In this document: in pieces, positions 20,174 to 64,000 of the stretch
Layout of the letters: each line of letters starts with the position of its first letter
How positions within the stretch are numbered: position 1 is the stretch's first letter
The notes under the pieces: generated by a model
Seen by the model: the letters and a program-made list of their open reading frames with translations, nothing else
Databases searched by the model: none
What the model was told of the DNA's origin: nothing
Position numbers and translations under genes: made by a program
Source: Caenimonas koreensis DSM 17982
Lineage (GTDB): Bacteria; Pseudomonadota; Gammaproteobacteria; Burkholderiales; Burkholderiaceae_C
DNA length: 64,000 nucleotides
Direction: 5' to 3'
NCBI RefSeq assembly: GCF_009646335.1
Contig: NZ_WJBU01000003.1
Coordinates: 62,001 to 126,000, forward strand

Positions 20174-20219
20174 TTGGCCTTTACTTCATTGTTCTTGAGC
20201 CTGAAGCGTGTTGGAGTCA

Positions 20220-20246
20220 TTGACAACAGTGATCTTCTGTTGTCAA
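20220..20246. promoter_or_regulatory. Perfect 10-base palindrome at the start of the toxin-antitoxin operon
   Basis: TTGACAACAG (20220-20229) and CTGTTGTCAA (20237-20246) are exact inverted repeats with a 7-base spacer, ending one base before the first ATG of the toxin gene. A strong TTGACA -35-like hexamer is part of the left arm. This is the expected place for autorepression by the antitoxin or the complex. No T-tract follows, so it is not a terminator. Confidence 0.75.
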
Positions 20247-20247
20247 A

Positions 20248-20881: not shown

Positions 20882-20896
20882 CCTTCAGGTTTCGCT

Positions 20897-21760: not shown

Positions 21761-21825
21761 GTTCGAAAACCATCGTGAGTTCCCTCGCCTTACGTGCCAA
21801 ACCGCCGGCTGGATGCAACGGCGCT

Positions 21826-25836: not shown

Positions 25837-25967
25837 GGTCACGGCAGCGGGAGCGATCCAGTTTAGCGTGGCCGGACGCAAATGGACATCGCCGCAAGGC
25901 GTGGTCTGACGAGCTGTTGGGCGGTCAACTGATTCTGCGCAAAGGTGCAATCCACACAATCACCCAC

Positions 25968-26276
25968 ATGCTTGCAAACGCCATCTACGCCATTACCGCC
26001 CTGCAATATGCAGGTCCGCATATCGTCGGTGCCATGATGGGCCTGATGGATACCGTCGATCACGAGTGGGACTTGCCTCCGGCGCCGGCCCGGCTCAACG
26101 ACGTTGTCGACAAACTCGTCGAGGGCGACCGCGTCATCAGCGTTTTCGCCGACGAAAGCGGCTGGCTCGCGTGCGGGCCGGAAGTCAAGGTCGACGTGCT
26201 GGCCGACAGCAGCGAGACGCTCGCGCTGGCCGAAGACCAGCCCGGCCGAAGCCTGCGCGACTTGCCGACTTACTGA
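25968..26276 (+). CDS. Small hypothetical protein
   Basis: This 102-residue protein begins with a hydrophobic stretch (MLANAIYAITALQYAGPHIVGAMMGLMD). The acidic remainder contains VVDKLVEGDRVISVFADESGWLACGPEVKVDVL, a beta-rich segment. No family is recognised. The frame is open upstream to 25572, but that part lies antisense to the MmcB-like gene, so the ATG at 25968 is preferred despite a weak ribosome site. Confidence 0.45.
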   Translation: MLANAIYAITALQYAGPHIVGAMMGLMDTVDHEWDLPPAPARLNDVVDKLVEGDRVISVFADESGWLACGPEVKVDVLADSSETLALAEDQPGRSLRDLPTY

Positions 26277-26289
26277 GCGAGCGGCGCCG

Positions 26290-26691
26290 CTACGAACGCG
26301 TTTTCGGCTTTTTCGCCTTTGCTGCGGCTGTAGATGCATTGAAGGCGATGGCGGCCCGGACGAGGGCTTTGAAGGCCGTTGCGTCCACTGTTTCGCCTTC
26401 GCCGATATCGATGGCGCGCCGCATGTTGCCGTCGAGGCTCGAATTGAAGAGCCCGGACGGGTCCTTGATGAAAGCGCCCTTGGCAAAAGTCAGCTTCACT
26501 TTGCCTTTGTACGACTCACCTGTGCAGATGATGCCGTCGTGCGACCAGACGGGCGTGCCCTTCCATTTCCATTCTTCGACAACCGCAGGGTCGGCCTGCT
26601 GGATGAGCTTGCGCATTCGCGCCAGTGTGTTGCTGCGCCAGTCGCCCAGGCTGGCAATTTTCTCGTCGATGAGTTCGGATGCAGTTGGCAT
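26290..26691 (-). CDS. DUF1801 domain protein
   Basis: This 133-residue protein has the DUF1801 pattern: ASLGDWRSNTLARMRKLIQQ, EEWKWKGTPVWSHDGIICTGESYKGKVKLTFAKGA and a Lys-rich tail. The family is small and cytoplasmic with no proven activity. GGAG lies seven bases before the ATG. It follows the tandem GNAT gene by 29 bases on the same strand and is probably co-transcribed. Confidence 0.8.
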   Translation of the reverse strand: MPTASELIDEKIASLGDWRSNTLARMRKLIQQADPAVVEEWKWKGTPVWSHDGIICTGESYKGKVKLTFAKGAFIKDPSGLFNSSLDGNMRRAIDIGEGETVDATAFKALVRAAIAFNASTAAAKAKKPKTRS

Positions 26692-26720
26692 GTCGGTCTC
26701 CGGGTGGCTTCCAGCGATTT

Positions 26721-27680
26721 TCAGGCAGCGACGTGCGCGACCCAGTGCACCACTGTCTCGCCTTGTTCGTCGATGCGGATGCCAGTATCGGCAAATCCGC
26801 AGCCACGTACCACGCTTGCGGATGCTGTGTTGTCGGGCGCGACTTGCGCAAGCACGGCCGTCGCTCCCGCCGCGCCAGCGAGTTGGAGCAGGCATGAGAC
26901 GGCGTAGCCTGCAGCGCCCTGGCGCCGGCAGGCAGGCGCGACGCCATAGCCAATCTCGACGCGTCCGTTGTGCGGCTCGCCCTTGAAGCTGCACGAGCCG
27001 GCGACGAGCTGGTCGGAATTTCGCACGATGAGGAACACCTGTGACCAGAAGGCGGCCTCGCCTTTTGAAAGCCGCAGCATGGCGCGCTCGCCCACGCGCG
27101 CCGGGGGCAGTGCATCCACCGCGACGGCTTGTGTGAGGCCAGCAGGAACGCGCGAAGCCGCTATGTCGGCGACTTGCCCAGGTGTCAGGCGCAGCAGCGA
27201 ATAGCTGGATCGACCTGTTGCCGCATCGTTGCGCCTCGCCATCTGGGCCAGGATGATCTTGTCGGAGTACGGCGTCAGTTCGGTCACGCGATAGCCGCGG
27301 CGCTCGTAGAACTGGACGTTGCCGGGCACCAGCGTATTGGTCGTCAACTCGAAGCGCGCCACGTGCGGATGCGCTCGTTCAACGGCGTCGAGGAGCAGCC
27401 CGCCTATGCCTTTTCCCTGATACGAAAGATCGACGCTGACGCCGCGGATCGTGCACACGTTCCCATCGAGAAGGCCACGAGCGGAGCCCACGATTTGCGC
27501 GCCGTCGCGCGCGGTCAACACGGTCTGTGTGCTGATGTGATGGGCGATCGCGTCGACGTGTTCTGCCAGCGGCGGGATTTGCATGTTCTCGCTCAGGCGT
27601 CCTTCCTGTTGGAAGGCTCGCATCTGGATGGCGTGAATGACAGCTGCATCTGCGGCAGTGGCGGGCGCAATGGTGTACAT
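26721..27680 (-). CDS. Tandem GNAT-domain acetyltransferase
   Basis: This 319-residue protein has two GNAT domains. The first (1-145) has the acetyl-CoA loop GVSVDLSYQGKGIGGLLLDAVE and the ending NVQFYERRGYRVTEL. The second (about 160-319) has IGYGVAPACRRQGAAGYAVSC and NTASASVVRGCGFADTG. Both loops keep the Q/RxxGxG/A pattern, so both may be active. Substrates unknown. The start lies next to the MITE-bearing spacer, which must hold its promoter. Confidence 0.85.
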   Translation of the reverse strand: MYTIAPATAADAAVIHAIQMRAFQQEGRLSENMQIPPLAEHVDAIAHHISTQTVLTARDGAQIVGSARGLLDGNVCTIRGVSVDLSYQGKGIGGLLLDAVERAHPHVARFELTTNTLVPGNVQFYERRGYRVTELTPYSDKIILAQMARRNDAATGRSSYSLLRLTPGQVADIAASRVPAGLTQAVAVDALPPARVGERAMLRLSKGEAAFWSQVFLIVRNSDQLVAGSCSFKGEPHNGRVEIGYGVAPACRRQGAAGYAVSCLLQLAGAAGATAVLAQVAPDNTASASVVRGCGFADTGIRIDEQGETVVHWVAHVAA

Positions 27681-27730
27681 CGGTTTTTCGTTTGGCTTTG
27701 CCGGATTTTGGAGGGTTCTTGTTCAGGGCG

Positions 27731-27977
27731 CTCGCGGCAGGCGGACTCTGGCGCGGCCTCCTGCTGTGACGGTTTGCGCTAGTCGCGCAAACTCCGCTTT
27801 GAAATTTTCCTTCGGACCGGTGCGAAAAAAACTCCCTGCGAGTTTGCAAGCAAACTCTCCGGTCAAACAGCTTTTCGCAAGTCAGTGCACGAGTCGCGCT
27901 AAAGCGCGATCCGGCCCGAAGAAAAATTTCAAAGCCGCTCACAAAAGTCGGCCGCGCCAGAGTCCGCCTACCGCGAG
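27731..27977. mobile_element. MITE-like palindromic element, copy A
   Basis: This 247-base element has terminal inverted repeats of 28 bases at 27731-27758 and 27950-27977, with a single mismatch (start CTCGCGGCAGGCGGACTCTG). The interior holds nested hairpins, among them GAGTTTGC/GCAAACTC around 27840-27857 and TCGCGCTAAAGCGCGA at 27894-27909. It has no coding capacity. Copy B at 28142-28385 matches this copy's reverse complement over most of the length, including the central GCAAACTCTCCGGTCAAACA. Confidence 0.8.
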
Positions 27978-28141
27978 ACAACGGCTCTGCTTGATCGACG
28001 AGATACCGACCGCTCCGTCTCTCCTCAGCCAGCGCGCGGACGGGTTGGCCGCAAATACCGTCCAGCTCGACCGTACTGTCCGTCATTCCAGGCAATGCGA
28101 AGCGAGCCGAGACTTAGAGTCAAACACCCCCAGTTGGTTAA

Positions 28142-28385
28142 CTCGCGGCAGGTGGACTCTGGTGGGGCTGATTTCTTTTGTGGCTTCAAGAATTGGCTCG
28201 AAGCCGGATCGCGCTTTAGCGCGACACGTCATCTGACTCGCAAAAGCTGTTTGACCGGAGAGTTTGCTTGCAAACTCGCAGGGAGTTCTTTTGCGCCGGC
28301 TTCGAGCCAATTCTTGAAGCGACGTTTGCGCGACAAGCGCAAACCACAAAAGCATGAGGCCCCGCCAGAGTCCACCTGACGCGAG
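28142..28385. mobile_element. MITE-like palindromic element, copy B (inverted relative to copy A)
   Basis: This 244-base element has ends CTCGCGGCAGGTGGACTCTG and its near-exact reverse complement at 28366-28385. Internal arms TTCAAGAATTGGCTCGAAGC (28186-28205) and its inverse (28300-28319) make a long second stem. The shared core with copy A runs antiparallel. The two copies together form an inverted pair about 650 bases across that could extrude as a cruciform. Confidence 0.8.
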
Positions 28386-28402
28386 CGCCCCGAACAAACA
28401 AC

Positions 28403-28771
28403 TCAGCGCAGCTTCGCCGCCAGCAACTTCGCAGCCATATCGAAGCACAACATGTACACCACGCCACAGGCGCCACCCAGCAGGAAATTTTGCGTCTTGT
28501 CCGGGAACTGCACCACCCAGACAACGCAAAGAAGCGCGGGCATCGCATAGGCAATCGGGCTCGCCAGCTTCAGTTTGTCGACAAGCGCCATGCCCGGCGT
28601 GATCCACAGCACGGCCAGCATCGGAATGGCAAGCAGGCCGGACAGCCATACAAGGTCTTGCGAGCCGACAAACAGGGCCGCTCCCACCAGGCACGCATAC
28701 ACCGCGCCCGCAGCGCACCAGTCAACGATGCGTGAACGGCTGTTCAATGAATCATCTGCAGGCTTGTCCAT
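28403..28771 (-). CDS. Small inner-membrane protein
   Basis: This 122-residue protein has four hydrophobic segments (about 18-36, 40-60, 70-88 and 94-112) and a short charged N-terminus (MDKPADDSLNSRSR). No family is recognised. It begins seven bases after the DMT transporter stop, so it is the last gene of the alkylation-repair operon. Its stop lies 17 bases from MITE copy B. Confidence 0.6.
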   Translation of the reverse strand: MDKPADDSLNSRSRIVDWCAAGAVYACLVGAALFVGSQDLVWLSGLLAIPMLAVLWITPGMALVDKLKLASPIAYAMPALLCVVWVVQFPDKTQNFLLGGACGVVYMLCFDMAAKLLAAKLR

Positions 28772-28778
28772 GAACCCG

Positions 28779-29678
28779 TTATAGCTGCTTGCCACGCCAC
28801 CGCGCCATCGTGATCAACCCTGCCGACAACGCCGTGCCGCAGATGATTACCGCGGCGCAAACCAGCATCCAGGCCGTGACGCTTTCATGCAGGAACAAGA
28901 CGCCATACAACACGGCAAACACCGGCACGAGGAAGGTGACGCTCACGGCACGGGCCGGCCCGGCCCGCTCGATGATTCGAAAGTACAGCACGTACGCAAT
29001 GCCGGTACACACCACGCCGAGCGCCACCGTCGCCAACCATGCATGTATCCCCGGTGTCTTCGCGGGCCAGTAGAGCAGGGCGGGCAGCGCGAGCGCGGCT
29101 GTCGATCCCATCTGGCTGCCAGCGGCGGTGACCAGCGCGGGCAATCCAGTGAGATAGCGCTTGGCCGCATTGGCCGCGATACCGTAGCAAAGCGTTCCCA
29201 CCAGGCAGGCCATGACAGCAAGGCCCGGCGCCAGGCCCGACGCATCAGGCTTGAACGACGCCTCGTCCCAGGCGAGCATCGCCACACCCACGAAGCCGAT
29301 GACCAGCCCTGCGATGCGGGCGGCCGTTGGCCTGTCTTTCAGCCACACCCACGCCACGAGCGCGCCAAAGAGCGGCACCGTCGCATTGAGGATGGCCGAA
29401 AGGCCCGTGGTGATGGACAGCAGCGCATACGCGAAGCAGACGAAGGGAATGCCCGAGTTGATCACGCCGACGATGAAAATCTTCTTCCAGTGCGCGCGCA
29501 GCAGCGAGCCGTGCCCGCGCAGGACCACCAGCGGCAGCAGGAAAGCCGTGGCAACGGTGACACGCAGGAACGCCACGGCAATCGCGCCGAACTCCACGAC
29601 GCCCCAGCGCATGAACAGGAACGACGCGCCCCAGATGGCGGCCAGCAGGATGAAGTCAGTGACCCACGGCTGCTTCAA
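28779..29678 (-). CDS. DMT superfamily (EamA) transporter
   Basis: This 299-residue permease has ten membrane helices in two EamA repeats (AAIWGASFLFMRWG near the N-terminus, GVVCTGIAYVLYFRIIERAGPARAVSVTFLVPVFAVLYG in repeat two). No ATG lies close to the start of homology. A TTG at 29678 overlaps the ogt stop as TTGA and has GGAAGG upstream, so translation is coupled to ogt. Metabolite or drug export is the usual role. The substrate is unknown. Confidence 0.85.
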   Translation of the reverse strand: MKQPWVTDFILLAAIWGASFLFMRWGVVEFGAIAVAFLRVTVATAFLLPLVVLRGHGSLLRAHWKKIFIVGVINSGIPFVCFAYALLSITTGLSAILNATVPLFGALVAWVWLKDRPTAARIAGLVIGFVGVAMLAWDEASFKPDASGLAPGLAVMACLVGTLCYGIAANAAKRYLTGLPALVTAAGSQMGSTAALALPALLYWPAKTPGIHAWLATVALGVVCTGIAYVLYFRIIERAGPARAVSVTFLVPVFAVLYGVLFLHESVTAWMLVCAAVIICGTALSAGLITMARWRGKQL

Positions 29679-52317: not shown

Positions 52318-54369
52318 GTGTCATTACACGCTTCCAGCCGCACCGCATCGTTCACTGCGTGTGCCGCATTGCTTTCATTCGCAGCGCCCTTATCGGCGCA
52401 AGTCTCTGCGCAAGTCTCGACGCAAGTTCCAGCGCAAGCTTCAACGCCAACGCTTGCGCCTGTCACTGTCACCGGCAATCCACTCGGCTCCAGCACCGCT
52501 GTGGCGCCAGCGGACCAGCTCTCCGGCACGGGCCTGGTGCTGCGCTCGCAATCCACGCTGGGTGAAACACTGTCTGGCACGCCCGGCGTGAGCAGCACTT
52601 ACTTCGGGCCGAACGCGAGCCGGCCCGTGATTCGCGGGCAGGACGGCGACCGCATTCGCATCCTCGCGAATAGCGGCGCTTCCATCGACGCCTCGGGTGT
52701 GAGCTACGACCATGCCGTCGCGCTCGACCCCATCGCTGTCGAGCGCATTGAAGTGCTGCGCGGGCCCGGTGCGCTGTTGTATGGCGGCAGCGCTGTTGGT
52801 GGCGTGGTCAACGTCATCGACAACCGCATTCCGCGCGAAGCGGTCACGGGCATCACGGGCCGCGCGGACATTGGTTTGAGCACGGCCAGCCGCGAGCGCG
52901 GCGGCGCGGCGCTGGTCGAGACGGGCAGCGACCGCTATGCACTGCACGTCGACATGTTCGACCGGCGCACGAGCGATGTGGCGGTGCCCGCCTTGCTTGC
53001 GTGCACCAAGCCTGGATCACCGTCGCTCGCCCGGCGCATATGCAACTCAGCGAGCTACGTGCGCGGCGGCGCGGTGGGTGGCTCGCTGCTGTTTGCCAAT
53101 GGCTACATCGGCGCATCGGCCACGACGTATCGCAACGACTACGGCACGGTGGCCGAAGACGAAGTGACGATCGGCATGAAGTCGAACCGCTATGCGCTTG
53201 AAGGCGAGTGGCGCAACCCGGTGGCGCTCGTCAAAAGCGTGAAGGCGCAATTCAGCCGCAGTGACTACTCGCATACGGAGTTCGAAGGCGCCACGCCGGG
53301 CACGCAGTTCCGCAACAGTGGCGGCGACTACCGCGTTGAGGTCAAGCACGCGAAGCTCGGGCCGCTGGAAGGCGTGGTCGGCTTGCAGGGTGAGCGCACG
53401 CGATTCGCGGCGGACGGCACGGAAGCATTCGCACCCTACAGCCGCACGCGCAGCGACGCGCTGTTTGTCTACGAAGAGTGGGCAGCGGGGTGGGGCAAGT
53501 CCACGTTCGGCGCGCGGGCCGAATCGGTTCGCGTGGAGTCGCTGGGCAACCCGCTGGTGGCGCGCTTCGTGCCCGCGGCCCGCAGCTTTGCACCACTGAG
53601 CGCGGCGGCTGGCCTGGCTGTGAATGTCGCGCCGCAATGGCAGGCCACGGCGAACCTCGCTTTCAGCGAACGCGCCCCCAAAGACTACGAACTGTTCGCC
53701 GACGGCCCGCACGTTGCCACTGGCGCGTACGAAGTGGGTAACGCAGCTTTGGGCAAGGAGCGTTCGGTCAACCTTGATGTGGGCGTGCAATGGAAGCGTG
53801 ATCACGACACCTTCCACCTGAGCGCATTCGAGAGCCGCTTTGCGAATTTCGTGTCGCTGCAAGCTAGCGGCACGCGCGTTGTTGGCGCGGACACATTGCC
53901 CGAGTTCACCTACACGCCGGTGCGCGCGCGCTTTCGTGGGTTCGAAGCTTCGGGCAATGTGCGCCTGCTGCAATCGCCGGCAACGCTGGACCTGGAACTG
54001 CGGGCCGACAGCGTTCGCGCGATCAACCTCGATACGAACGAGCCGCTGCCGCGCATCGCACCGTGGCGCGCCGGCGCGACGCTGGCCTGGGCACGCGGCG
54101 ACTGGGGCGTGCGCGTGGGCTTCGATCACTTCGCTACGCAGTCGCGCGTGCCCACGGGTGACTTGCCGACCAGCGCCTACACGCTGTGGACAACGTCTGT
54201 TACCTGGAAGATGCAGCGCGACAACTGGAATGCGCTTTGGTACGCGCGCATCGACAACGCGGCCAACACGCTTGCCTACAGCGCGACGTCGATCCTCACG
54301 CAGACGGCGCCGGGCAAGTCGCCGCTGCCGGGGCGCAACCTGAAGGTGGGTGTGCAGCTGAACTTCTAG
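52318..54369 (+). CDS. znuD: TonB-dependent receptor, ZnuD-like (zinc)
   Basis: This 683-residue receptor begins at GTG (GAAGG nine bases upstream). Its signal peptide is followed by a four-unit repeat (AQVSAQVSTQVPAQAS) and the TonB box region TLAPVTVTG. The plug includes RPVIRGQDGDRIRIL and GPGALLYGGSAVGGVVNVIDNRIP. The barrel carries the ZnuD-family block FSERAPKDYELFADGPHVATGAYEVGN and a Cys pair (CTKPGSPSLARRIC) in an early extracellular loop, and ends with Phe. It closes the MacB-like/DUF3299 cluster, supporting zinc uptake. Confidence 0.82.
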   Translation: MSLHASSRTASFTACAALLSFAAPLSAQVSAQVSTQVPAQASTPTLAPVTVTGNPLGSSTAVAPADQLSGTGLVLRSQSTLGETLSGTPGVSSTYFGPNASRPVIRGQDGDRIRILANSGASIDASGVSYDHAVALDPIAVERIEVLRGPGALLYGGSAVGGVVNVIDNRIPREAVTGITGRADIGLSTASRERGGAALVETGSDRYALHVDMFDRRTSDVAVPALLACTKPGSPSLARRICNSASYVRGGAVGGSLLFANGYIGASATTYRNDYGTVAEDEVTIGMKSNRYALEGEWRNPVALVKSVKAQFSRSDYSHTEFEGATPGTQFRNSGGDYRVEVKHAKLGPLEGVVGLQGERTRFAADGTEAFAPYSRTRSDALFVYEEWAAGWGKSTFGARAESVRVESLGNPLVARFVPAARSFAPLSAAAGLAVNVAPQWQATANLAFSERAPKDYELFADGPHVATGAYEVGNAALGKERSVNLDVGVQWKRDHDTFHLSAFESRFANFVSLQASGTRVVGADTLPEFTYTPVRARFRGFEASGNVRLLQSPATLDLELRADSVRAINLDTNEPLPRIAPWRAGATLAWARGDWGVRVGFDHFATQSRVPTGDLPTSAYTLWTTSVTWKMQRDNWNALWYARIDNAANTLAYSATSILTQTAPGKSPLPGRNLKVGVQLNF

Positions 54370-54542
54370 CTGAGCTTCTAAGTACGCATTCTTAAGCGGG
54401 ATGGTCGGCCTTTGGCGGTCTTGATGTAGCCACAGCGAATACAGTTGCGCGGCCCCGGAAGACCTCGGGAGTGCATGCGAACCATTGAAATTCCGTCGCT
54501 CATTGCTGTTTGCGGGCAATCATGGGTAGTGACGCACATTGA

Positions 54543-55196
54543 CTAAGCGGATCCGGGAGCCGGGCGCGCGCAACGCGCCACGAAGTTGCCGACGATCGCC
54601 GCGTCAGGAAACGCCTTCTTTAGCAGAATCGAGCACGCGACGAAGTGCGCACCAGTGGTCAGCACATCGTCGAAGAGGTAGATGTACTTTGGTGGATTCA
54701 CGGGCACTGAGGACAATGAGAGCGTCTTGATCAACTCATCAATCTTTGGTCTCTTTTTTGTCGCGTGACTGGTTGGAGCTGAGCCAGCACTGACGATCGC
54801 TTCACGCACGTCCAGCGCCACGCCCGTCGACGCCCCGATCTTCAGCAGGACTTGCGTCATTCGATCGTCGAAAAGCGGATCGGGACGTGCTCTAGATGGG
54901 GGCACAGGCACAAGCATGCATTGGTGCGCGAGCGCAGACCATTTCCAGAACCCAGCGAATGCAGTACTGATTCGCTCGATCGCATCGCGCTTGCGTTGCC
55001 AGTCCGGATCCTGCTGCTTAAATGCAGGCGCTTTAAAGTCGGCGACAAGCCGATTTGTCTCCGAGAAGTTCCACGTCAAGCCTTTGGTGAATTCCCAAGG
55101 CGTGTACTCGCCCCAGAAGTAGCACTTGTGCTCCGGGCGGAGATAGAAATGCTGATGGCGCTCGACGCCTCCGATCAACTGTAGGCGCTGGCGCAT
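54543..55196 (-). CDS. ComF-like phosphoribosyltransferase domain protein
   Basis: This 217-residue protein has the type I PRTase PRPP loop YIYLFDDVLTTG at 171-182, and the segment MLVPVPPSRARPDPLFDDRM (94-113) matches the ComF layout. The N-terminal 90 residues lack the ComF zinc finger and instead carry HFYLRPEHKCYFWGEYTP, family unknown. The start overlaps the dprA-like stop (TGATG), so the two are coupled. Base composition is lower in GC than upstream genes. With DprA it recalls natural competence, but the divergent helicase operon suggests a defence role (inference). Confidence 0.8.
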   Translation of the reverse strand: MRQRLQLIGGVERHQHFYLRPEHKCYFWGEYTPWEFTKGLTWNFSETNRLVADFKAPAFKQQDPDWQRKRDAIERISTAFAGFWKWSALAHQCMLVPVPPSRARPDPLFDDRMTQVLLKIGASTGVALDVREAIVSAGSAPTSHATKKRPKIDELIKTLSLSSVPVNPPKYIYLFDDVLTTGAHFVACSILLKKAFPDAAIVGNFVARCARPAPGSA

Positions 55197-56083
55197 CAGG
55201 CGAACGCCTCTAGAATTTGCGAGAAGTCGGCGACGCGCGTAGCTCCGAGCCTCTCAAGTTCGGCCGGCCAGGCGAGGCCCGGCTTGTGGAAATTGCTCTC
55301 TAGGATGAAGAGCCTGCGCCCCTGGTCAAGAGCGGCACGGGCCTGCGTTAGCGTTCCCGAAGTTTCGCCCGCCTCCACGATAACCGTTGCCTGCGTGAGC
55401 GCCGACATAGTCTTGTTCCGCTCAGGAAAGAAAAGACGATTCCTCCGATAGTCTTGGCGCTTGTACCGCAGCACTGGGACCTGGCTTACGACTAGGTACT
55501 TGTTTGCCAATGCCTCCTGAAGCGCTGCGTTCTCGCGAGGGTAGCTCTCTGAGATCGGCGTTCCGATGACGGCAAACGTGCGACCGCCGAACTCCATTGC
55601 CGCTGTGTGGGCGATCGTGTCCACCCCGCGTGCCAAACCCGAAACTATGGTGAAGCCAGAGGCGACGAGCTGCCGGACGAGCTTGCGCGTGCGATCCCTT
55701 CCTTCTGGCGATACTTCTCGCGTGCCAACGACGGAGATTCGGCGCGGTGATTCGGCCAAGTCCCAAGACCCTCTGAAGTACAAGCCGCCGATGGGCTCCT
55801 TTGCATCGCGCAGACATGCTGGGTAGGTCCAGGCGCCATACAACCGGACCCCAAAGTTCGCAACGCCCCGACGCTCGAATTCGGCAATGACCTCCGCCCA
55901 GGTTTCGCGAGCCTTGTCCTGTGGGACGAGCTCTGACGGAAGCCACGCTCCTTCGCGACCTAGAAGCGCTGCCATCCGGCGCACTGACATCCCCGGCTGC
56001 ATCCAAAGGTATTCGTATGCCCCCATTTCATTGGCGGCATCGACTGCTTTCTCAGCCAGGAATTCAGCGTGCGTCTCAGTCAC
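55196..56083 (-). CDS. DprA/Smf-like SLOG-domain protein
   Basis: This 295-residue protein has a Rossmann-like DprA domain with RISVVGTREVSPEGR (115-129), VSGLARGVDTIAHTAAM (147-163), GTPISESYPRENAALQ and NRLFFPERNKTMSALTQATVIVEAGETSGTLTQA. DprA loads RecA on incoming ssDNA, but SLOG proteins also occur in immune systems as nucleotide or DNA sensors. The C-terminal winged helix of many DprA proteins is absent and the N-terminal 80 residues are not a normal SAM domain. It is divergent from the 944-residue gene. Confidence 0.85.
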   Translation of the reverse strand: MTETHAEFLAEKAVDAANEMGAYEYLWMQPGMSVRRMAALLGREGAWLPSELVPQDKARETWAEVIAEFERRGVANFGVRLYGAWTYPACLRDAKEPIGGLYFRGSWDLAESPRRISVVGTREVSPEGRDRTRKLVRQLVASGFTIVSGLARGVDTIAHTAAMEFGGRTFAVIGTPISESYPRENAALQEALANKYLVVSQVPVLRYKRQDYRRNRLFFPERNKTMSALTQATVIVEAGETSGTLTQARAALDQGRRLFILESNFHKPGLAWPAELERLGATRVADFSQILEAFA

Positions 56084-56116
56084 GATTTTTCACCTTAACG
56101 GCATAGTAACGACCCC

Positions 56117-56144
56117 AAACGCCAAATCTGATTTGGACGCGTTT
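56117..56144. promoter_or_regulatory. Palindrome in the divergent promoter region of the putative defence island
   Basis: CCAAATC (56122-56128) and GATTTGG (56130-56136) are exact inverted repeats about one central base. AAACGC (56117-56122) and GCGTTT (56139-56144) extend the symmetry with a small bulge. The 210-base gap between the two operons also holds TTGACA at 56175-56180. It is a likely shared operator or protein-binding site. Confidence 0.55.
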
Positions 56145-56292
56145 AGGTGTGATAGGTGGGGTGGGCAATTCACGTTGACAACCGCAGATATAGAGCACCA
56201 CATTACAGCGAGGGGTGCAAGGGGGGATATATGCCGATTTCAGTCAAAGGCGCAAATTGGCCGCGATCAAATAGAGCTTCGGAGGGGGCTCT

Positions 56293-59127
56293 GTGAGCTC
56301 CTACCTTTTGGAAGTTGAGGAGGGTCTTCGCACTCACTTCGATTGGCTTAAGAGGGAAAAGAGCGCCCTTAAGTCGCCGGTCTTCGCGATCGAGCATCCA
56401 CTATCGAAAGAGGAGCTCGCAAAGCTCCGTGCGGAGTTAGCGAGCAGCTTGCGGCTCGCCGGCGAAATGTCGTCGAAGTACAAGTTATGTTGGATCGTTC
56501 ACAGTGCTGAGCACGGCTACGATTTTGCTGGCCTTGAGTTCTGGGAATCGTTTGCCAAAATGACGCCGAACTGGTCGGTGTATGGCAACAAGTATGTTCT
56601 TCGCTCTTGGTATCGAGAGTTCGCAAAGGCCCACGGCGGGATCCAGCCGCAAGGTGACTGGGGCAAGCACTACACCTTCATTGCTTGGCCGATCGCTAAT
56701 GCCTTGGCGCCGCTGGACCTTCAGGTCCATCTGGCGCGTACTCTGTTCAATGCCAGATACTTCTTACGCGAAACCCAAGAGGCACCGGCAGAGATGATTG
56801 GACGCTTCATTTCTCCCTATGCCGAAAACCCGAGCTCGCGTTTTCAATTTTTCCTTGAACAAAGCAGCATCGTCGGCTACCTCGTTCGAGGCCTGCTGGA
56901 GGGGATCGACAAGGAAACTGTCATTTACAGGCCGACGCTTCAGCGCATCACCAATGATCTCAACGGCCGGGCCAACGCTAGAGAATGGTTGCGCGACGCT
57001 CGTCGCCAGTACAGCAGAACAATCTTCTATTACGGCCGGCAGAACGAGTACAGGTTAAGCAACGGCGACGACGGAGGGGTCGACGAAGGTGGCGCTGACC
57101 CTATCGCCCAACTTCGCCGCAGCGGCGTGCTGCTCAAGCCCAGGATAGTGCTGACCCGCCGCGAGGATGATTCGTGGGTTCCTGTTTTGCGCATTCCAGG
57201 CTTTCAACCACTTGTAGACATTCGGCAGGAGTTTCGAGCGCATCTGCTTCGTTCAAAATTTGTCGTTCCCGCTCATGGCGACCAGTTGTTTTTGGGCGCC
57301 ACGCTCCTGACGGGAGCGCCGCTGTCGCGTACGCTGCGCAGCTGGCCAGCGGAACGGGAGTGCGTCCTGCGATTCAACACGCGGGAGTCCTACTTCGACC
57401 AGATCGTCAGTGCCGAATGCCAGATGGATCCCTCCAATATCTGGCTATTCCAAGACCGTCGAGACGGCGGAGCCACATTGATTACCGGCGGTCAAGTTCG
57501 CGCCGGGGCGAGCTACATCGTTGTTGCTCGTAACGCAGATGCAATCAACGCGCTGGGCAAACCGACCACGCTGAAGTGCGACGGCGCTCATGCGGTCGCA
57601 CTCGATTTGCCGAATCCACTTGGCAGCGACTTAAGTCACCGGCTGGAGCGTGCTGGGCTGTCCATCGCGAGGCGCTTGCGGCTGCAGCCTGTCGGACTGC
57701 GCCCGCGTCAATGGACCGAGGATGGGTTCGGCGAGTGGCTGTCCTCTGAAACCCCCACTCTAGTCGTATACCGGGATTTCGAGTTCGACGCTCTAACGAT
57801 CGAGTTCGTCGGGTTGCAACCAGAAGAGATCAAGTGCGGTCCAGGTACAGAGCCCGCATTCATGCAGTTGCGCAACTTACCAATCGGCCGGCACCATCTC
57901 CAGATCAAGGCCACGAAACTGACTGGCAATCTCGGCGCCTATCGAGCTGAGGTCGCTAGTGCAAGCCTGCACGTCTATATCAGGCCCCCAACTTCTTGGG
58001 CACCAGGCAAGCTCGCGCTTTCTGCTCTGGTCGTCTCAACGGATCCTCCCATCCCCACATTGGACGATTTGTTCAATCACTCGTTAGACCTCCAGGTCGC
58101 GGGCGACAGCTCCAGATCACTGACGATCTCCCTGAGAGCCATCGACGAGAACGGTGCTGCCAAACTTACAGACATCGCGAAGAACCTGCGATCACCGCTG
58201 GACTCCTCTGTATGGCACAGCGCGCTGCAATCGTTTCTGGACGGCTTGGAAAGTGAGTTGCCGTACTTCACCGCCACTTCCACAGGTTTGGTGATTGCCG
58301 CGGAGGACGTTGGCGAGCAGCGAGTTGCGTTGGAGATTCCCGCCAAGCCACTTCGCTGGGCATACTCGCATCAAGGCACGGCGCAGAAAGTACTCCTGCT
58401 GAACGACGGCGTCGAGGAGGCGGAGATCGAAGCGGCGTTCTACCCTTTCGCGCGGCCCAACCAGCAGGAGAGACTCGATGTCTCTGCCCTTTCCGGCGGA
58501 ATTGACGTTGGGGGCAAGCACGGCCTCTACCAAGTCCGCGGGGCAGGAATAGAGATCGCAATTGTGGTCGGGTCAGCTGCGACGCGGGGACATGGATTGG
58601 AGTTCCTGCAGGCAGGCGCAGACTCCGAAGCTCTGGTCAAACTCAACATTCGACAACTTATCGCTCTTCGCACACTCTGGTGTAGCGCCCGCGCCGTGAA
58701 CAAACTAGGGCGATATAAGCGCAACTCCCTGTGTGGCCTGCTGCACCGGGCGGTACTTGCCAAGACGTGCACCGAATATTGGTGTCGTGAAGAACAGGCA
58801 CTGACAAGCAACTCCACGGAGTTGGATTGGTCGCGTTTGGAGGAAGGAGTCCATCCACGGTCCTTTGCGATCTGCCTGACGAACGCTTGGAAGCGAGATC
58901 GACCTCATACTAGGTCGGAGCTGGCGGACGTCTTTTCGGAGATCGCACACTCATTCAAGTTGGCGAGCTACAAGGAGGCGCGTGCCGTCTGGGCATTGGC
59001 CACTGAATCGGCTCCCTCGGAACACTCGACAACGAATGTTCCCATCGGGGCCGGTCTGGAGACGCTGATGAAAGGTGCGCGATTAATGTGGCGCTCTCAA
59101 GAGCTGGGCCGCAGGAGGGATCTGTGA
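56293..59127 (+). CDS. Large uncharacterised protein of the putative defence operon
   Basis: This 944-residue protein begins at GTG with GGAGGGGG ahead of it. No motif of a known enzyme was recognised. Residues 1-250 are helical and Trp-rich (WIVHSAEHGYDFAGLEFWES ... GDWGKHYTFIAWPIANALAP). About 270-600 reads as beta-rich, with LRIPGFQPLVDIRQEF and GGQVRAGASYIVVARN. The C-terminal part (about 750-944) is again helical, with several Cys. No membrane segment or ATP motif is visible. The stop overlaps the next GTG. Large partners of DUF1998-type helicases in defence loci have this size and position; homology is not claimed. Confidence 0.75.
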   Translation: MSSYLLEVEEGLRTHFDWLKREKSALKSPVFAIEHPLSKEELAKLRAELASSLRLAGEMSSKYKLCWIVHSAEHGYDFAGLEFWESFAKMTPNWSVYGNKYVLRSWYREFAKAHGGIQPQGDWGKHYTFIAWPIANALAPLDLQVHLARTLFNARYFLRETQEAPAEMIGRFISPYAENPSSRFQFFLEQSSIVGYLVRGLLEGIDKETVIYRPTLQRITNDLNGRANAREWLRDARRQYSRTIFYYGRQNEYRLSNGDDGGVDEGGADPIAQLRRSGVLLKPRIVLTRREDDSWVPVLRIPGFQPLVDIRQEFRAHLLRSKFVVPAHGDQLFLGATLLTGAPLSRTLRSWPAERECVLRFNTRESYFDQIVSAECQMDPSNIWLFQDRRDGGATLITGGQVRAGASYIVVARNADAINALGKPTTLKCDGAHAVALDLPNPLGSDLSHRLERAGLSIARRLRLQPVGLRPRQWTEDGFGEWLSSETPTLVVYRDFEFDALTIEFVGLQPEEIKCGPGTEPAFMQLRNLPIGRHHLQIKATKLTGNLGAYRAEVASASLHVYIRPPTSWAPGKLALSALVVSTDPPIPTLDDLFNHSLDLQVAGDSSRSLTISLRAIDENGAAKLTDIAKNLRSPLDSSVWHSALQSFLDGLESELPYFTATSTGLVIAAEDVGEQRVALEIPAKPLRWAYSHQGTAQKVLLLNDGVEEAEIEAAFYPFARPNQQERLDVSALSGGIDVGGKHGLYQVRGAGIEIAIVVGSAATRGHGLEFLQAGADSEALVKLNIRQLIALRTLWCSARAVNKLGRYKRNSLCGLLHRAVLAKTCTEYWCREEQALTSNSTELDWSRLEEGVHPRSFAICLTNAWKRDRPHTRSELADVFSEIAHSFKLASYKEARAVWALATESAPSEHSTTNVPIGAGLETLMKGARLMWRSQELGRRRDL

Positions 59128-60197
59128 GCAAGCCTGAATTGGTATCAGTAACCCCACCTAAAGTCCTCCAGCAGATTCACGCGGACCTATCACTGCCAGA
59201 CACCGGCGACCCCCAGACTTTGGTCGCCGAAGTGATGCGGCGCATTGCCGGCACGATGTGTCCGTGCCCTCCGGGCGCGCTACGTCGCGCGACGGTAAGC
59301 GCACTCGCGCCCCTCTCGCTCCTCGACGCACTTGAAGACCAAGTGGATGACACGTTTGAAGACTTAGTTGGAACGGGCGATCTGATTGAGCTGACCCGGG
59401 TACTCGTCGAAGGCGGTGAAAACCAACCGTCGTGGATGTTCTGCAGCCCGCCGAGCTTTGTCAGACGAAGCAGCGGGCGCATCTATATCATCGGTGTGGC
59501 TCCTGATGACGCGGTCTTCCTGCCTTCGGAGTTGCGCAAGACGATGCTCCGATCCGGAGCACTCAGATACTTCGACGATCCAGAAGGTGCGTGCGCAAAG
59601 GAGTTGCGGGGGATCGGTCTCCGTGAGTTGCTCCCAGAAGCTTGGCTGGTGCAACGGCGCCCTGTTTCGGCTGAGGCGGTCGTGACGCAGCATCTCCACC
59701 TCCTGGAAAAGAACGGAGTTCCTGGAGCGCTCGACAAGGCTGTGATACTCGGCGGCCCAAATGCAGGCAAGAGTTACCGAGATCGGTGGATGTCTCCGAC
59801 AAATGAGAGCGGTCATTTCATCGTGCGCGTTCCCCAACTCTATGGTGAGCCGCTGTGGTATCTGTCGAAATTGGATTTAGGAGTCGTCCAGCGCTCCTTG
59901 CTAATGCCTGCTCAAGAAGCAAAGGAGCGATCGAGTGACGCCGCCTGGCGTTTGCAACTCGCTCTTGACGCCGCTGCTGGTCAACCGAACGCATACAAGC
60001 TGGCAGAGATCGATGGTGGATACCTGATGGTCTTCAGCTTCCCACTGCCCCTAGAGGCCAGGAGGCGACTGACCATCGTCGGCTCACGTCGGGCCCAGCC
60101 TGGCTCGGGTACGACGCGGTTCTGGATTCCAAAAAATGAATTGGCGGAGGAGCAGCGGTTCTTGCGCGATTCCTACTGGCTGTTTGCCAAGGACTGA
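59124..60197 (+). CDS. Uncharacterised 357-residue protein of the putative defence operon
   Basis: Begins at GTG, overlapping the previous stop (GTGA), with GCAGGAGGG upstream. Residues about 45-95 could form a winged helix (RATVSALAPLSLLDALEDQVDDTFEDLVGTGDLIELTRV). The rest contains RIYIIGVAPDDAVFLPSELR and LLPEAWLVQRRP, with no known motif. An apparent P-loop-like GGPNAGKSYRDRW at about 220 lacks the hydrophobic strand context to be convincing. The helicase ATG follows the stop by one base. Confidence 0.7.
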   Translation: MSKPELVSVTPPKVLQQIHADLSLPDTGDPQTLVAEVMRRIAGTMCPCPPGALRRATVSALAPLSLLDALEDQVDDTFEDLVGTGDLIELTRVLVEGGENQPSWMFCSPPSFVRRSSGRIYIIGVAPDDAVFLPSELRKTMLRSGALRYFDDPEGACAKELRGIGLRELLPEAWLVQRRPVSAEAVVTQHLHLLEKNGVPGALDKAVILGGPNAGKSYRDRWMSPTNESGHFIVRVPQLYGEPLWYLSKLDLGVVQRSLLMPAQEAKERSSDAAWRLQLALDAAAGQPNAYKLAEIDGGYLMVFSFPLPLEARRRLTIVGSRRAQPGSGTTRFWIPKNELAEEQRFLRDSYWLFAKD

Positions 60198-60198
60198 T

Positions 60199-63100
60199 AT
60201 GAATCTAACGATGGGCCAAGTGGCTGACCAGCTCAAAGAGGCGCTGATCGAATACATCGAGGCGACTTACCACATTGCTGAGCCTGCGATCCTAGATCAA
60301 CGAAGGCAGTTGCTTGAGCAACTTGGGGTCGTGCACCAAGCGCCTTACCTCGAATCCACACCGCGATACCAGACCGGTGAAAAGTTTCGGCAGATCAAAG
60401 GACTCCACGCAGCAGCGCTAAAGGCTTTCGAGACGCTATCTAAGCCCAATGCCAAGGGTCGCACCTTGCTCTACGACCCGCCGTACACGCACCAAAGCCA
60501 AGCGATTCGAGAGACTCTCGTGAACGGCAAAAATCTACTGATTACCACCGGGACTGGCTCCGGCAAGACAGAGTCGTTCCTGATGCCAGTGTTGGGCAAG
60601 TTCGCGCACGAGGCATCGCAGAAGCCGGACGTTTTCGCGGGGCAACCAGGGGTCAGGGCCATGATCCTGTACCCGATGAATGCCTTGGTCAATGACCAGC
60701 TCGGCCGGCTTCGTGCCATCTTCGGCGACCCGAGGTTGGTGGATCAATTTATGACACTGGCCGGCAGGCCACCCCGTTTTGCAAGGTACACGAGCCGCAC
60801 CCCGTACGCGGGCGTTCGTCGCAAGAGCAAGGACCAGGAGCGGCTGCGCCCCATTGGTAAGTTCTATGTCGACGCGCTTGAACGCGCGAAGGAAGACACG
60901 GAGGACGGGGAGACGGCGCGCAAGCTAATTGAAGAACTCTCCTCCCGTGGAAAGTGGCCAGCCAAGCCGGACCTAGAGCGATGGTATTTGGGCCCGAACG
61001 GTAGGTTCTGGCAGAACAAGAACGGTGAATTCATCCGAGCCGTGACCCTCCCTGGGGATTCCGAGTTGATTACTCGGCACGAGGTGCAAGCCGCAGCGCC
61101 AGATCTTTTGGTGACCAACTACTCGATGTTGGAGTACATGCTGATGCGCCCGATCGAGCGAAGCATCTTTGACCAGACGCGCGAGTGGCTAGTTCGCTCT
61201 CCGCAAGAGCGGTTCCTTCTGATACTGGACGAGGCGCACCTCTACCGCGGCGCCGGCGGAGCTGAGGTGGGCCTACTTATCCGCAGATTGCGAGATCGCC
61301 TGAACATCCCAGCAGACCGTCTGCAGGTGATCTGCGCAACCGCCAGCTTCAAAGACGCGGATTCCGGCAAAACTTTCGCCGGGCAACTGACCGGCACTGA
61401 TCCCGCGTCCTTCATTTCAGTCCAAGGTGATTTGCGCCTTTGGGAGGGGCAGGGGGTTGGCACGATCACAGACGCTGAGCTTTTCGCTAGTGTGGACATG
61501 GAGGCCTTTTACAGTGAGAACCCTGCCAGTCGACTCACCGCTATCCGGCCCATCCTGGGCCTGAGGCGGCGCGAACCGGTAGAGGGCGAGGATCCAGAGC
61601 GCACCCTATATTCCGCGTTGAAGGACTACGCGCCCCTTGCGCTCCTGGTGAACTCCACAATGAAGCAGGCCTTGGCAGTGAATGGCCTTGGCAGCCTGAT
61701 TTTTCCTGGCGCTGAGAAGAGCCTTGCCGATCGCGCGGTCACCACGCTTGCGTCGCTCGCCTCCGCTGCTCGGACCGATCCCAACGAACCGAGCCTGCTT
61801 CCCTGCCGAGTGCACACGTTCTTCCGCGGCCTCAGAGGCCTGTGGGCGTGCATGGACCCCAACTGCACATCAATCCCTGAGTCCCAACGCGGTGGGAGCA
61901 TCGGCAAGTTGTACGCACAACCTCGCGATCTTTGCGAATGCAATGCGCGAGTACTGTCGTACTTCACGTGCCGCGTTTGTGGCTCGTCATACGCGCGTGG
62001 CTATACGGCCGATCCGGAGCGGCCCGATACGGTCTGGCCTGAGCAGGGGTCGGAGCTTCGGGTCGCAGGCGATGAAATTGCCGAACTCCATGAGCTGGAT
62101 CTCCTATTGGTACCTCCGCGGGAAATGAGCGGCGTCGAACCGACCACATTCGATCTTACGACGGGCCAGCTAAATCCAGCACTCGAATCGGTTCGCGAAC
62201 GACTAGTGTTCCTGGCGCGTGAGCGAACTGACTCGGACGGAGGAGACGATGAGGATGAGGACGGTCCTTACATCGCCTCAAAGGGAACTTTCGGGCGATG
62301 TGCGATGTGCGAGCGAGGCTCGAATCAAGGTCGCTCGCCAGTGCAAGACCATGAAACCAAGGGCGACCAGCCGTTCCAGGTATTGGTGAATAAGCAGATC
62401 CAAGTCCAGCCGCCAGCTCCACAACACGCGACTAAGTTCGCGCCACTGCGTGGTCGCAAGGTCCTTGCTTTCTCCGACTCGCGCCAGGTGGCGGCGCGAC
62501 TTGCCCCATATTTGCAGATGTTTTCCGCTCGGGATTCATTGCGACCTCTCATTGTGCGAGGCTGGCGTCGCCTCTCTCAAATTTCGAACTTCCAGCTACA
62601 GCTCAGAGATGTTTACGCAGCCGTGCTGCTTTCGGCGCACGAGCTCGACGTGCGGTTGCGGCCAGAATTGCGGGACACGGAAAGCTTTAGCTCCTACGGG
62701 ATGGTTGGGGAGCAGGTTGAGCAAGGCGTATTGGACTCAGACTCTGAACTGAAGGCGCTGTGCGTTGAGCTGCGCTCGTCAGACATTCCTCCTCGAGCGC
62801 TCTTGATCGATCTGATCTCGACCATGCGTGACCGTTCTCTTGGCCTGGAACCTTTGGCGCTGGCCAGCATCGTCGAGCGCACAGACAAGGCCAAACCAGT
62901 TCTTGAGTTACCTCACGTTCCCGGCGTTACTGAAACAGACGAAGACAAGATTCAACTCGCACGAGCGTGGCTTCGCGAATGGAGCCGGGCGGGCTTCAAC
63001 CTCCCGGGATTCATGGACATAACTTGGTTTGAGGCTGCCAGCGACAAGAAGATAAAGGTCACAACACTCACAGGAAAGTTCCAGAAGTTCTTGCGCAGGC

Positions 63101-64000
63101 TTCCAAATGCGGGAGCCAAGAAGATCGTGAAGGAAAAGTGGCTGCCGGCACTCTTGAGGATATTCGCTGAGGATCAGGGTGGACGTTGGCGTTTGAACGG
63201 CAACCACCTCGCTCTGACACTCGGAGGTCAATGGGTGCGCTGCGAGGATTGCAAGTCTGTTCATCGTCCGGTACGCCTCCTGCACGTGTGCTTGGACTGC
63301 GGGCGGGATTCTGTGAAGCCGTTGGACCCTGACAACGATCAAGTCTTTGCGAAGCGCAAAGGTTTCTATCGCCGCGGTGTATTGGTGGCACTCACTGAAA
63401 AGCCGGAAGCTCCGGTGTCCTTAGTTGCAGCCGAGCACACCGCGCAGCTCAATTCCGCAGAGCACGACGATGTCTTTTCCAAGGCAGAAGAAAATGAGCT
63501 CCTATTTCAGGACATTCAGGTGCCTATCCCCGATCGCAGGCAGGCACCCAGCGCGATCGACGTTCTCTCAAGTACGACCACCATGGAGGTGGGCATTGAC
63601 ATTGGTCAGTTGCCTGCGGTCGCACTTCGCAACATGCCTCCCAGCCGTGCAAATTACCAGCAGCGTGCTGGTCGGGCGGGCCGTCGTGCCAACGCGATTG
63701 CCACGGTGGTAGCCTTCGGCGGATCAGATACACACGACGAGCACTTCTTCGACAAACCGGCAGAAATGATTGCTGGCGACGTGGTCGACCCGACTCTGAC
63801 GATGAACAACCCGGACATCGCGAAACGACATGTCCGAGCATTTCTGCTGCAGCGGTACCACCAAGACAAAATTCCTGAAGTGCCCGCGAATGCGAACGGG
63901 GATCTGTACTCTGTCCTTGGAAAAGTTGGTGACTTCAAAAGCAACACCGGGATCATCAACCGGGCCGACTTTGAAGGTTGGCTTCGTGAACATGAAACTG
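60199..64000 (+). CDS. Large DEAH-box superfamily 2 helicase with Cys-rich insertions, 3' end outside window
   Basis: At least 1267 residues, cut by the window edge. Motif I is TTGTGSGKTES (116-126) after the Q-like PPYTHQSQAIRETL. Motif Ia is ILYPMNALVNDQLGRLR, motif II DEAH at 344-347 and motif III ATAS. Motif V is TTTMEVGIDIG near 1128 and motif VI QRAGRAGRR (1155-1163). The very long gap between the two RecA halves holds several Cys pairs (CMDPNC, CECNARVLSYFTCRVC, CAMC, CEDC, CLDC), probable zinc ribbons. This layout is typical of DUF1998-associated helicases of DISARM and Druantia. The DUF1998 itself would lie beyond the edge. Confidence 0.88.
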   Translation, partial: MNLTMGQVADQLKEALIEYIEATYHIAEPAILDQRRQLLEQLGVVHQAPYLESTPRYQTGEKFRQIKGLHAAALKAFETLSKPNAKGRTLLYDPPYTHQSQAIRETLVNGKNLLITTGTGSGKTESFLMPVLGKFAHEASQKPDVFAGQPGVRAMILYPMNALVNDQLGRLRAIFGDPRLVDQFMTLAGRPPRFARYTSRTPYAGVRRKSKDQERLRPIGKFYVDALERAKEDTEDGETARKLIEELSSRGKWPAKPDLERWYLGPNGRFWQNKNGEFIRAVTLPGDSELITRHEVQAAAPDLLVTNYSMLEYMLMRPIERSIFDQTREWLVRSPQERFLLILDEAHLYRGAGGAEVGLLIRRLRDRLNIPADRLQVICATASFKDADSGKTFAGQLTGTDPASFISVQGDLRLWEGQGVGTITDAELFASVDMEAFYSENPASRLTAIRPILGLRRREPVEGEDPERTLYSALKDYAPLALLVNSTMKQALAVNGLGSLIFPGAEKSLADRAVTTLASLASAARTDPNEPSLLPCRVHTFFRGLRGLWACMDPNCTSIPESQRGGSIGKLYAQPRDLCECNARVLSYFTCRVCGSSYARGYTADPERPDTVWPEQGSELRVAGDEIAELHELDLLLVPPREMSGVEPTTFDLTTGQLNPALESVRERLVFLARERTDSDGGDDEDEDGPYIASKGTFGRCAMCERGSNQGRSPVQDHETKGDQPFQVLVNKQIQVQPPAPQHATKFAPLRGRKVLAFSDSRQVAARLAPYLQMFSARDSLRPLIVRGWRRLSQISNFQLQLRDVYAAVLLSAHELDVRLRPELRDTESFSSYGMVGEQVEQGVLDSDSELKALCVELRSSDIPPRALLIDLISTMRDRSLGLEPLALASIVERTDKAKPVLELPHVPGVTETDEDKIQLARAWLREWSRAGFNLPGFMDITWFEAASDKKIKVTTLTGKFQKFLRRLPNAGAKKIVKEKWLPALLRIFAEDQGGRWRLNGNHLALTLGGQWVRCEDCKSVHRPVRLLHVCLDCGRDSVKPLDPDNDQVFAKRKGFYRRGVLVALTEKPEAPVSLVAAEHTAQLNSAEHDDVFSKAEENELLFQDIQVPIPDRRQAPSAIDVLSSTTTMEVGIDIGQLPAVALRNMPPSRANYQQRAGRAGRRANAIATVVAFGGSDTHDEHFFDKPAEMIAGDVVDPTLTMNNPDIAKRHVRAFLLQRYHQDKIPEVPANANGDLYSVLGKVGDFKSNTGIINRADFEGWLREHET

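What the first reader, a model, noticed from the sequence alone, without database searches (positions are those of the whole stretch)
54543..64000. Possible undescribed defence system: DprA/PRTase pair divergent from a giant helicase operon
Five genes form two back-to-back, internally overlapping operons in DNA of lower GC than the rest of the window. One strand codes a DprA-like SLOG protein and a ComF-like phosphoribosyltransferase. The other codes a 944-residue unknown, a 357-residue unknown and a very large DEAH helicase with zinc-ribbon-like insertions. Giant helicases of this type are the core of DISARM and Druantia, but I know of no named system with a DprA-PRTase pair as partners. A system that couples ssDNA or nucleotide sensing to a translocating helicase is a fair hypothesis.
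Basis: partly seen in the sequence, partly recalled or inferred. Interest (0 to 1): 0.85.

Follow-up and report, generated by a model that had tools for sequence, protein, structure and literature searches.

The report
Unmodelled Druantia variant next to ShosTA
The locus holds two known kinds of anti-phage defence side by side, a ShosTA toxin-antitoxin pair and a Druantia helicase system, and the Druantia part carries a large protein of unknown function in place of two of its usual parts.

Summary
The five genes are real and placed as described, but they are not one undescribed system. The DprA/PRTase pair is ShosA/ShosT (PADLOC E 1e-89 and 4e-41). The other operon is Druantia: the 357-aa protein is DruD (5e-81) and the helicase full-length DruE type 1 (E 0). 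A DruA gene (7e-84) lies just past the window. Of 80 loci with relatives of the 944-aa gene (80 kept of 109 found), 0 show ShosTA in the DNA fetched; of 9 other ShosTA stretches, 0 show Druantia. The two are neighbours in a 12.9-kb stretch whose genes are absent from nine same-genus stretches at that site.
The 944-aa protein, 'X', is uncatalogued: 0 of 26 members match PADLOC. Yet X-DruD-DruE with DruA recurs in eight phyla without recognisable DruB or DruC. Canonical type I fails as a label; this is a Druantia variant (A-X-D-E). X evolves faster than DruE but in step with it, has remote kin beside DISARM genes, and its N-terminus gives a suggestive, unproven match to DruH, the proposed sensor of Druantia III. 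Most likely X is the sensing or specificity subunit.

The parts
54543..55196 (-). ShosT, phosphoribosyltransferase toxin of ShosTA (217 aa)
   Evidence: PADLOC ShosT E 3.8e-41; PRPP-type motif LFDDVLTTG at residue 174 (motif recalled)
55196..56083 (-). ShosA, DprA-like antitoxin of ShosTA (295 aa)
   Evidence: PADLOC ShosA E 1.1e-89; Pfam PF02481 E 7.9e-54
56084..56292 (.). 209-bp divergent gap between the ShosTA and Druantia operons, presumably with both promoters (not tested)
56293..59127 (+). X, 944-aa protein, with DruB and DruC absent; proposed sensor/specificity subunit; about residues 1-270 are the more conserved N-terminal region
   Evidence: no match at E up to 0.1 in PADLOC, Pfam or NCBIfam; 80 species loci kept; DruD directly downstream in 74 of 80; conservation by region
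59124..60197 (+). DruD (357 aa)
   Evidence: PADLOC DruD1 E 4.8e-81; GTG at 59124 overlapping the X stop
60199..64000 (+). DruE type 1, SF2 (YprA-family) helicase, 1851 aa; continues past the window to 65754. DruA (65915-67099, minus strand) follows outside the window
   Evidence: PADLOC DruE1 1896 bits, model positions 3-1769 of 1776; Pfam DEAD, Helicase_C and MZB; L002:12137-17755 and DruA L002:17916-19100

Best explanation
A defence island with two independent modules. (1) ShosTA: the ShosT phosphoribosyltransferase toxin is held in check by the DprA-like ShosA. (2) A Druantia variant with four genes, DruA, X, DruD and DruE, without the DruB and DruC of canonical type I. Shown here: gene content, recurrence of the module, no recognisable DruB/DruC and no ShosTA in the DNA fetched around it elsewhere, fast but DruE-coupled evolution of X. 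Inferred: X is the infection-sensing or specificity subunit. On a phage signal it licenses DruE, which loads on 3' single-stranded DNA of replication intermediates and unwinds or blocks phage DNA. DruD bridges the two, and DruA (DUF4338) supplies a further DNA-related activity that I cannot define.
For: PADLOC assignments. X-DruD in 74 of 80 X loci and DruE in 71 of 80. Of the 6 without DruD, 3 are cut by the end of the DNA; of the 9 without DruE, 6 are cut. The other three (L015, L042, L073) have a shortened or split X. DruA in 72 of 80; DruB, DruC or ShosTA in 0 of 80, by profiles at E up to 1e-6 (the DruB and DruC profiles rest on two and one sequence). X-linked DruE form one branch of 75 rows, 74 with X. 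X is less conserved than DruE in 2701 of 2701 pairs (median 28% vs 53%); the two identity matrices correlate at r 0.97 (0 of 1000 permutations reach it). DruH is likewise more divergent than DruE in Druantia III (PMC13192584 section 13). X vs DruH: hhalign scores 32.9-38.6 in eight local comparisons, at the N-termini; for one of them (32.9) 200 column shuffles reach at most 24.0; of nine region pairings only N-N stands out. The DruE role is taken from Druantia III. ShosTA role: PMC12593503 passage.
Against: No structure: the prediction tool was off. hhalign probability for X vs DruH is only 1.3-44% depending on input and cut, the global mode scores 19.3, and an unrelated control pair (DruD vs full-length X) reaches 29.8. 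DruD is also divergent (34%), so fast evolution does not single out X. Bell et al. predict an inactivated nuclease in type I DruE (passage), so the effector step may lie in another protein. Of three DruE1 genomes other than the own one found without using X, only one carries X (G732); G045 has DruB-like and DruG-like neighbours, and G740 has DruD-DruE with no X in the 3.1 kb to the contig end.
Confidence: 0.75

Rival explanations
1. The five genes form one new composite system in which the DprA/PRTase pair senses ssDNA or nucleotides for the helicase.
For: Back-to-back arrangement with a 209-bp gap; both pieces lie in one stretch absent from same-genus relatives.
Against: 0 of 80 X loci show ShosTA; 0 of 9 ShosTA stretches outside the window show Druantia, both within the DNA fetched; ShosTA is described as a system of its own (passage).
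Confidence: 0.03
2. X is only a diverged DruB-DruC fusion, so the locus is ordinary Druantia type I.
For: DruA lies upstream of X in 39 of 80 loci, as it lies upstream of DruB in L013; PADLOC DruA1, DruD1 and DruE1 models all fit.
Against: 0 of 26 X members match any PADLOC model at E up to 1; hhalign vs a two-row DruB profile 0.3%; X is shorter than DruB plus DruC of L013 (944 vs 1183 aa). DruC was tested only by PADLOC models and by a profile from one sequence.
Confidence: 0.12
3. X is an effector (for example a nuclease activated by DruE) rather than a sensor.
For: Type I DruE is predicted to carry an inactivated nuclease domain (PMC12458937 passage), so some other subunit may cut; DruH of type III is reported to have both sensor features and nuclease activity.
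Against: No significant Pfam match for 26 of 26 members (best E 0.09); residues 811-900 are the least conserved part (19%), unlike a catalytic domain, though this leaves the N-terminal half open.
Confidence: 0.2
4. ShosTA and the Druantia variant are separate but act together in this host, both answering stressed replication DNA.
For: Adjacent and divergent; [quoted passage not shown] a passage says ShosTA may respond to protein-DNA replication intermediates.
Against: Adjacency seen only in the window among the loci examined.
Confidence: 0.12

Closest known systems
Druantia type I (DruABCDE)
   Same: DruA, DruD and DruE by PADLOC type 1 models; DruE falls on the same side of the tree as the P. 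putida type I one, away from type III
   Different: No DruB or DruC match; one ~950-aa protein X instead; DruA at the far end on the other strand in the window
Druantia type III (DruH-DruE)
   Same: One large fast-evolving partner protein with DruE; suggestive N-terminal profile match of X to DruH
   Different: X members match no DruH3 model; DruE fits the type 1 model best; DruA and DruD present
Druantia type IV (DruE-DruF-DruL; PMC8565338 passages)
   Same: DruE plus a hypothetical protein without domain annotation
   Different: No DruF match among the six proteins; X matches no PADLOC model
ARMADA (PMC12458937 section 5)
   Same: YprA-family giant helicase of the Druantia side of the tree
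   Different: No BrxHII-like helicase and no PglX-like methyltransferase recognised among the six island genes
X-like genes beside DISARM (L009; L010 by annotation)
   Same: Remote X relative, aligned over 752 columns as part of a four-row profile, beside DrmA and DrmB
   Different: Different main helicase (DrmA/DrmB) and a SNF2 helicase after X-like
ShosTA
   Same: Both proteins, adjacent with the toxin gene downstream of the antitoxin gene, as in most of the plasmid pairs seen
   Different: Nothing noted; ordinary member

Membership tests
Druantia type I | DruA (DUF4338) | tested here: met
   PADLOC DruA1 E 6.6e-84; Pfam PF14236 E 7.3e-67; lies just outside the window
Druantia type I | DruB | tested here: not met
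   No DruB1 match for any of the six island proteins or for 26 of 26 X members
Druantia type I | DruC | tested here: not met
   No DruC1 match
Druantia type I | DruD | tested here: met
   PADLOC DruD1 E 4.8e-81
Druantia type I | DruE type 1 helicase with intact motifs | tested here: met
   1896 bits, nearly the whole model; motifs
Druantia type III | DruH | tested here: not met
   No DruH3 match for the six proteins or in 26 X members; hhalign suggestive only
Druantia type II | DruM, DruF, DruG | tested here: not met
Druantia type IV | DruL and DruF | tested here: inconclusive
   No match in PADLOC, but I saw no DruL or DruF model at work, so their presence in the library is unverified
[quoted passage not shown]
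   Six genes recognised between the TonB receptor and pdxH, none of these kinds
ShosTA | ShosA and ShosT as an adjacent pair | tested here: met
ShosTA | Toxin activity of ShosT neutralised by ShosA | not testable with these tools
   needs an experiment
Druantia (any type) | Protection against phage | not testable with these tools
   needs an experiment

The most novel reading that the evidence does not exclude
X, the X-like proteins beside DISARM, and DruH share one ancient N-terminal domain: a plug-in infection-sensor family that giant YprA-type helicase systems (Druantia and DISARM) exchange among themselves. The locus would then be one member of a hidden Druantia type, spread over many phyla and defined by X.
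Probability: 0.3. Interest if true: 0.7.

Novelty: new variant of a known kind. Interest (0 to 1): 0.5.

Why it matters
How Druantia recognises phage is known in part for type III only, as far as the papers that I saw go. If X is the sensor of a Druantia variant found in eight phyla, and has kin in DISARM-like loci, it offers a directly testable link between helicase defence systems that are now filed apart. It also shows a regular component for which I found no PADLOC model, so such loci may be scored as incomplete type I (inference).

Tried and rejected
Single five-gene system: rejected on co-occurrence. DruB/DruC homology of X: nothing found. PHROGs: no match for two X proteins, one weak match (E 0.003) for the X-like protein of L009. 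Pfam for X: nothing significant (best Big_13, E 0.09, in 1 of 26). PDB: X profile best E 0.64, with phage tip protein J at 0.7 and 1.0, not meaningful; DruD best E 0.43; DruE matches two solved helicases, 9tu7 (E 2e-68) and 9wae (3e-64), named only as helicases, which I take for DruE of other types without having checked, and 6znp. X in 399 genomes of the order: only the own genome. Mobile-element ends: no tRNA in L002, no clear flanking repeat. Viral-contig searches for DruH and DruC relatives: none; for X: 4 loci; for X-like: 1. Literature: Druantia + ShosTA gave 6 papers, seen as a listing only; Druantia + DprA + phosphoribosyltransferase gave 0. In searches (20 of 39 and 20 of 97 papers listed for 14 and 115) and in the texts opened I met nothing that I could recognise as X. 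The library lacks most subscription papers; Doron et al. 2018 was not read (its gene list comes from PMC7251935 passages); figures and supplements of the YprA paper were not seen.
Full report
OBSERVATION. The window is contig C34:62001-126000 of a 4.6-Mb genome. I read on past 64000. The helicase ends at 65754. A minus-strand gene at 65915-67099 follows, then a gene at 67290-67937 that I read as pdxH. The island lies between that gene and a TonB receptor (stop 54369); both names are by eye from the sequence. Island GC is 58.3%, against 64.9% for window 1-54369.

IDENTITY. PADLOC: ShosT 3.8e-41; ShosA 1.1e-89; no match for the 944-aa protein; DruD1 4.8e-81; DruE1 E 0, 1896 bits over nearly the whole model; DruA1 6.6e-84 for the gene beyond the window. 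Pfam agrees for DprA, DEAD, Helicase_C, MZB and DruA. NCBIfam gives only sub-threshold ComF and DprA matches for the pair and nothing for the 944-aa protein. Motifs expected of DruE, ShosT and ShosA are present (motifs recalled).

THE 944-aa PROTEIN (X). In 399 genomes of the same order only the own one has it. In plasmids 9 records match, 5 of them over at least 80% of X; I opened 5 of the 9. The Nitrosococcus watsonii plasmid shows DruA-X-DruD-DruE as a plain operon. A Sinorhizobium medicae plasmid has X and DruD, a DruE interrupted by an IS3 transposase gene, and no DruA that I found. A scan of one genome per species found 109 relatives, of which the best 80 were kept, with stretches of 3.0 to 22.8 kb. 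By profile search, DruD is directly downstream in 74 of 80 and DruE in 71 of 80. Of the six without DruD, three are cut by the contig end; of the nine without DruE, six are cut. The remaining three (L015, L042, L073) have a shortened or split X. DruA is found in 72 of 80 (39 upstream, 33 downstream), not in 8. DruB, DruC and ShosTA are found in 0 of 80. The 80 loci fall in eight phyla: Pseudomonadota 35, Actinomycetota 29, Acidobacteriota 11, and one each of five others. The nearest full locus is in Variovorax sp. MHTC-1 (L016; DruE 61% identical; X 37%), with the same convergent DruA as in the window.

TREE. DruE from 82 loci: all 74 X-linked DruE plus one other (G740, no X detected) form one branch with local support 100. 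Two hybrid loci branch next to it (96), then the two loci with DruB-type genes; type III is the outgroup. Caveats: FastTree only, long-branch warnings, and most rows were found through X, so the sampling favours this picture. Searched without X, DruE1 hits at the thresholds set were 2 of 399 genomes in the order (own and G045) and 3 of 398 in the phylum (own, G732, G740). Of the three besides the own genome, G732 is DruA-X-DruD-DruE, G045 has DruB-like (E 3e-6, N-terminus only) and DruG-like neighbours, and G740 has DruD-DruE with no X in the 3.1 kb left on its contig.

WHAT X MAY DO. Of 26 X members, 0 match any PADLOC model at E up to 1, and none has a significant Pfam match. Over 74 loci X is less conserved than DruE in 2701 of 2701 pairs (medians 28.4% and 52.5%; DruD 33.7%). 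Residues 1-180 are the most conserved (40-46%), 811-900 the least (19%). X and DruE identities go together (r 0.97, 0 of 1000 permutations as high), so they travel as partners. For Druantia III, DruH is likewise reported as more divergent than DruE and as the likely phage sensor, while DruE loads on 3' ssDNA (PMC13192584, sections 5, 9, 13, 16 and 19 read; abstract and outline of PMC13316683). hhalign of X against DruH first gave 1.3% probability. With more DruH sequences, eight local comparisons gave 4-44%, scores 32.9-38.6, P 0.0002-0.01; a global one scored 19.3. Controls: for one pair (score 32.9) 200 column shuffles gave mean 14.6, maximum 24.0; reversed profiles at most 17.5; five unrelated families at most 22.7 against DruH, but one of them (DruD) 29.8 against full-length X. 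Of nine pairings of the N, middle and C parts only N with N stands out (35.8, the rest at most 20.8). This is suggestive, not proof: the X-DruH scores exceed the best unrelated pair by 3 to 9 units.

REMOTE KIN. X-like proteins from four plasmid loci match X over 752 columns (hhalign probability 100%). They lie beside DISARM DrmA and DrmB on a Rhizobium plasmid (PADLOC) and beside similarly annotated genes on an Azospirillum plasmid. They also lie in a hybrid locus on Paracoccus and Leisingera plasmids that holds DruA, DruE, a NERD helicase, a weak DruD relative, a SNF2 helicase and X-like (PADLOC for some of these genes).

ShosTA IS SEPARATE. ShosT at E 2.4e-40 or better occurs in 3 of 398 phylum genomes (own included). 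The other 49 of the 52 genomes with a hit score no better than 3e-16 and look like housekeeping ComF, which is inference. ShosA relatives were found in 15 plasmid records; I opened 7 of 15. With the two genome loci that makes 9 stretches of 13.8 to 24.9 kb, and none holds X, DruA, DruD or DruE by profile. By my profiles ShosT was missing in L137 and L145 and weak in L139, and ShosA weak in L137, although PADLOC's ShosT model scores the L137 genome strongly. A review passage gives ShosT as a phosphoribosyltransferase and pyrophosphatase, countered by DNA-binding ShosA (PMC12593503); a passage of PMC10732053 names ShosTA among systems activated by phage single-strand-binding protein.

ISLAND. 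The pdxH-like gene is found in 12 of 13 genomes of the genus, own included. In nine same-genus stretches around it (2.7 to 11.1 kb), 0 of 9 hold any island gene by tblastn. The TonB receptor was found in 4 of 9: it ends 1.0 kb from pdxH in L170, 0.7 kb in L175, 4.5 kb in L172 and about 9 kb in L174 (receptor end only), against 12.9 kb here. The site looks like a variable spot into which the island was placed. I found no tRNA or flanking repeat that would mark how, and no integrase among the six genes.

PRIOR KNOWLEDGE. Type I is defined as DruA-E (PMC7251935 passages). PADLOC's authors added type IV, DruE-DruF-DruL (PMC8565338 passages). The YprA-helicase paper (PMC12458937; outline, passages and sections 5, 7 and 26) places DruE near ARMADA and reports an inactivated nuclease domain in type I DruE. 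The passages of PMC11090510 that I saw mention Druantia type III. In the text that I read I could not recognise X. PADLOC's DruD1 models fit the X-linked Nitrosococcus DruD strongly (490 bits), so such loci were probably already within reach of the catalogue through DruA, DruD and DruE, without X (inference).

VERDICT. Two known kinds of system, side by side by chance or by selection for defence islands. The Druantia part is a new variant because of X. Gene identities are near certain; the sensor role of X is my best guess at about 45%.

Noticed in passing
L014:6523-24712 (Paracoccus versutus pTAV4) and L097:7207-27009 (Leisingera plasmid): Shared hybrid locus: MzaB-like ATPase, long DruA, DruE, NERD/UvrD-type helicase and a weak DruD relative on one strand, facing SNF2 helicase and X-like on the other. 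Looks like a Druantia/DISARM composite.
   Followed up: partly
L009:2820-17876 and L010:1242-14844 (Rhizobium and Azospirillum plasmids): In L009, DISARM-type DrmA and DrmB with NERD and UvrD helicases diverge from an X-like gene that is followed by a SNF2 helicase; L010 shows a similar left part and the X-like gene by annotation.
   Followed up: partly
   Followed up: partly
   Followed up: no
L070:5024-19516: Two X genes upstream of one DruD, and DruE in two open frames.
   Followed up: no
L141:11944-15736 and L143:11944-18221: A second DprA-like gene (in L141 also a second phosphoribosyltransferase) lies close to ShosTA, facing it.
   Followed up: no
window 54369-64000 and same-genus L170, L172, L174, L175: The interval between the TonB receptor and pdxH varies from 0.7 to 12.9 kb in the genus: looks like an insertion hotspot.
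   Followed up: partly
window 19000-22000 and 26000-29000: Two dips in GC (about 60-63%); ORFs at 20897-22012, 25048-25959, 26066-26986 and 28083-28718 have no Pfam match at E up to 0.001 (some may not be genes).
   Followed up: partly
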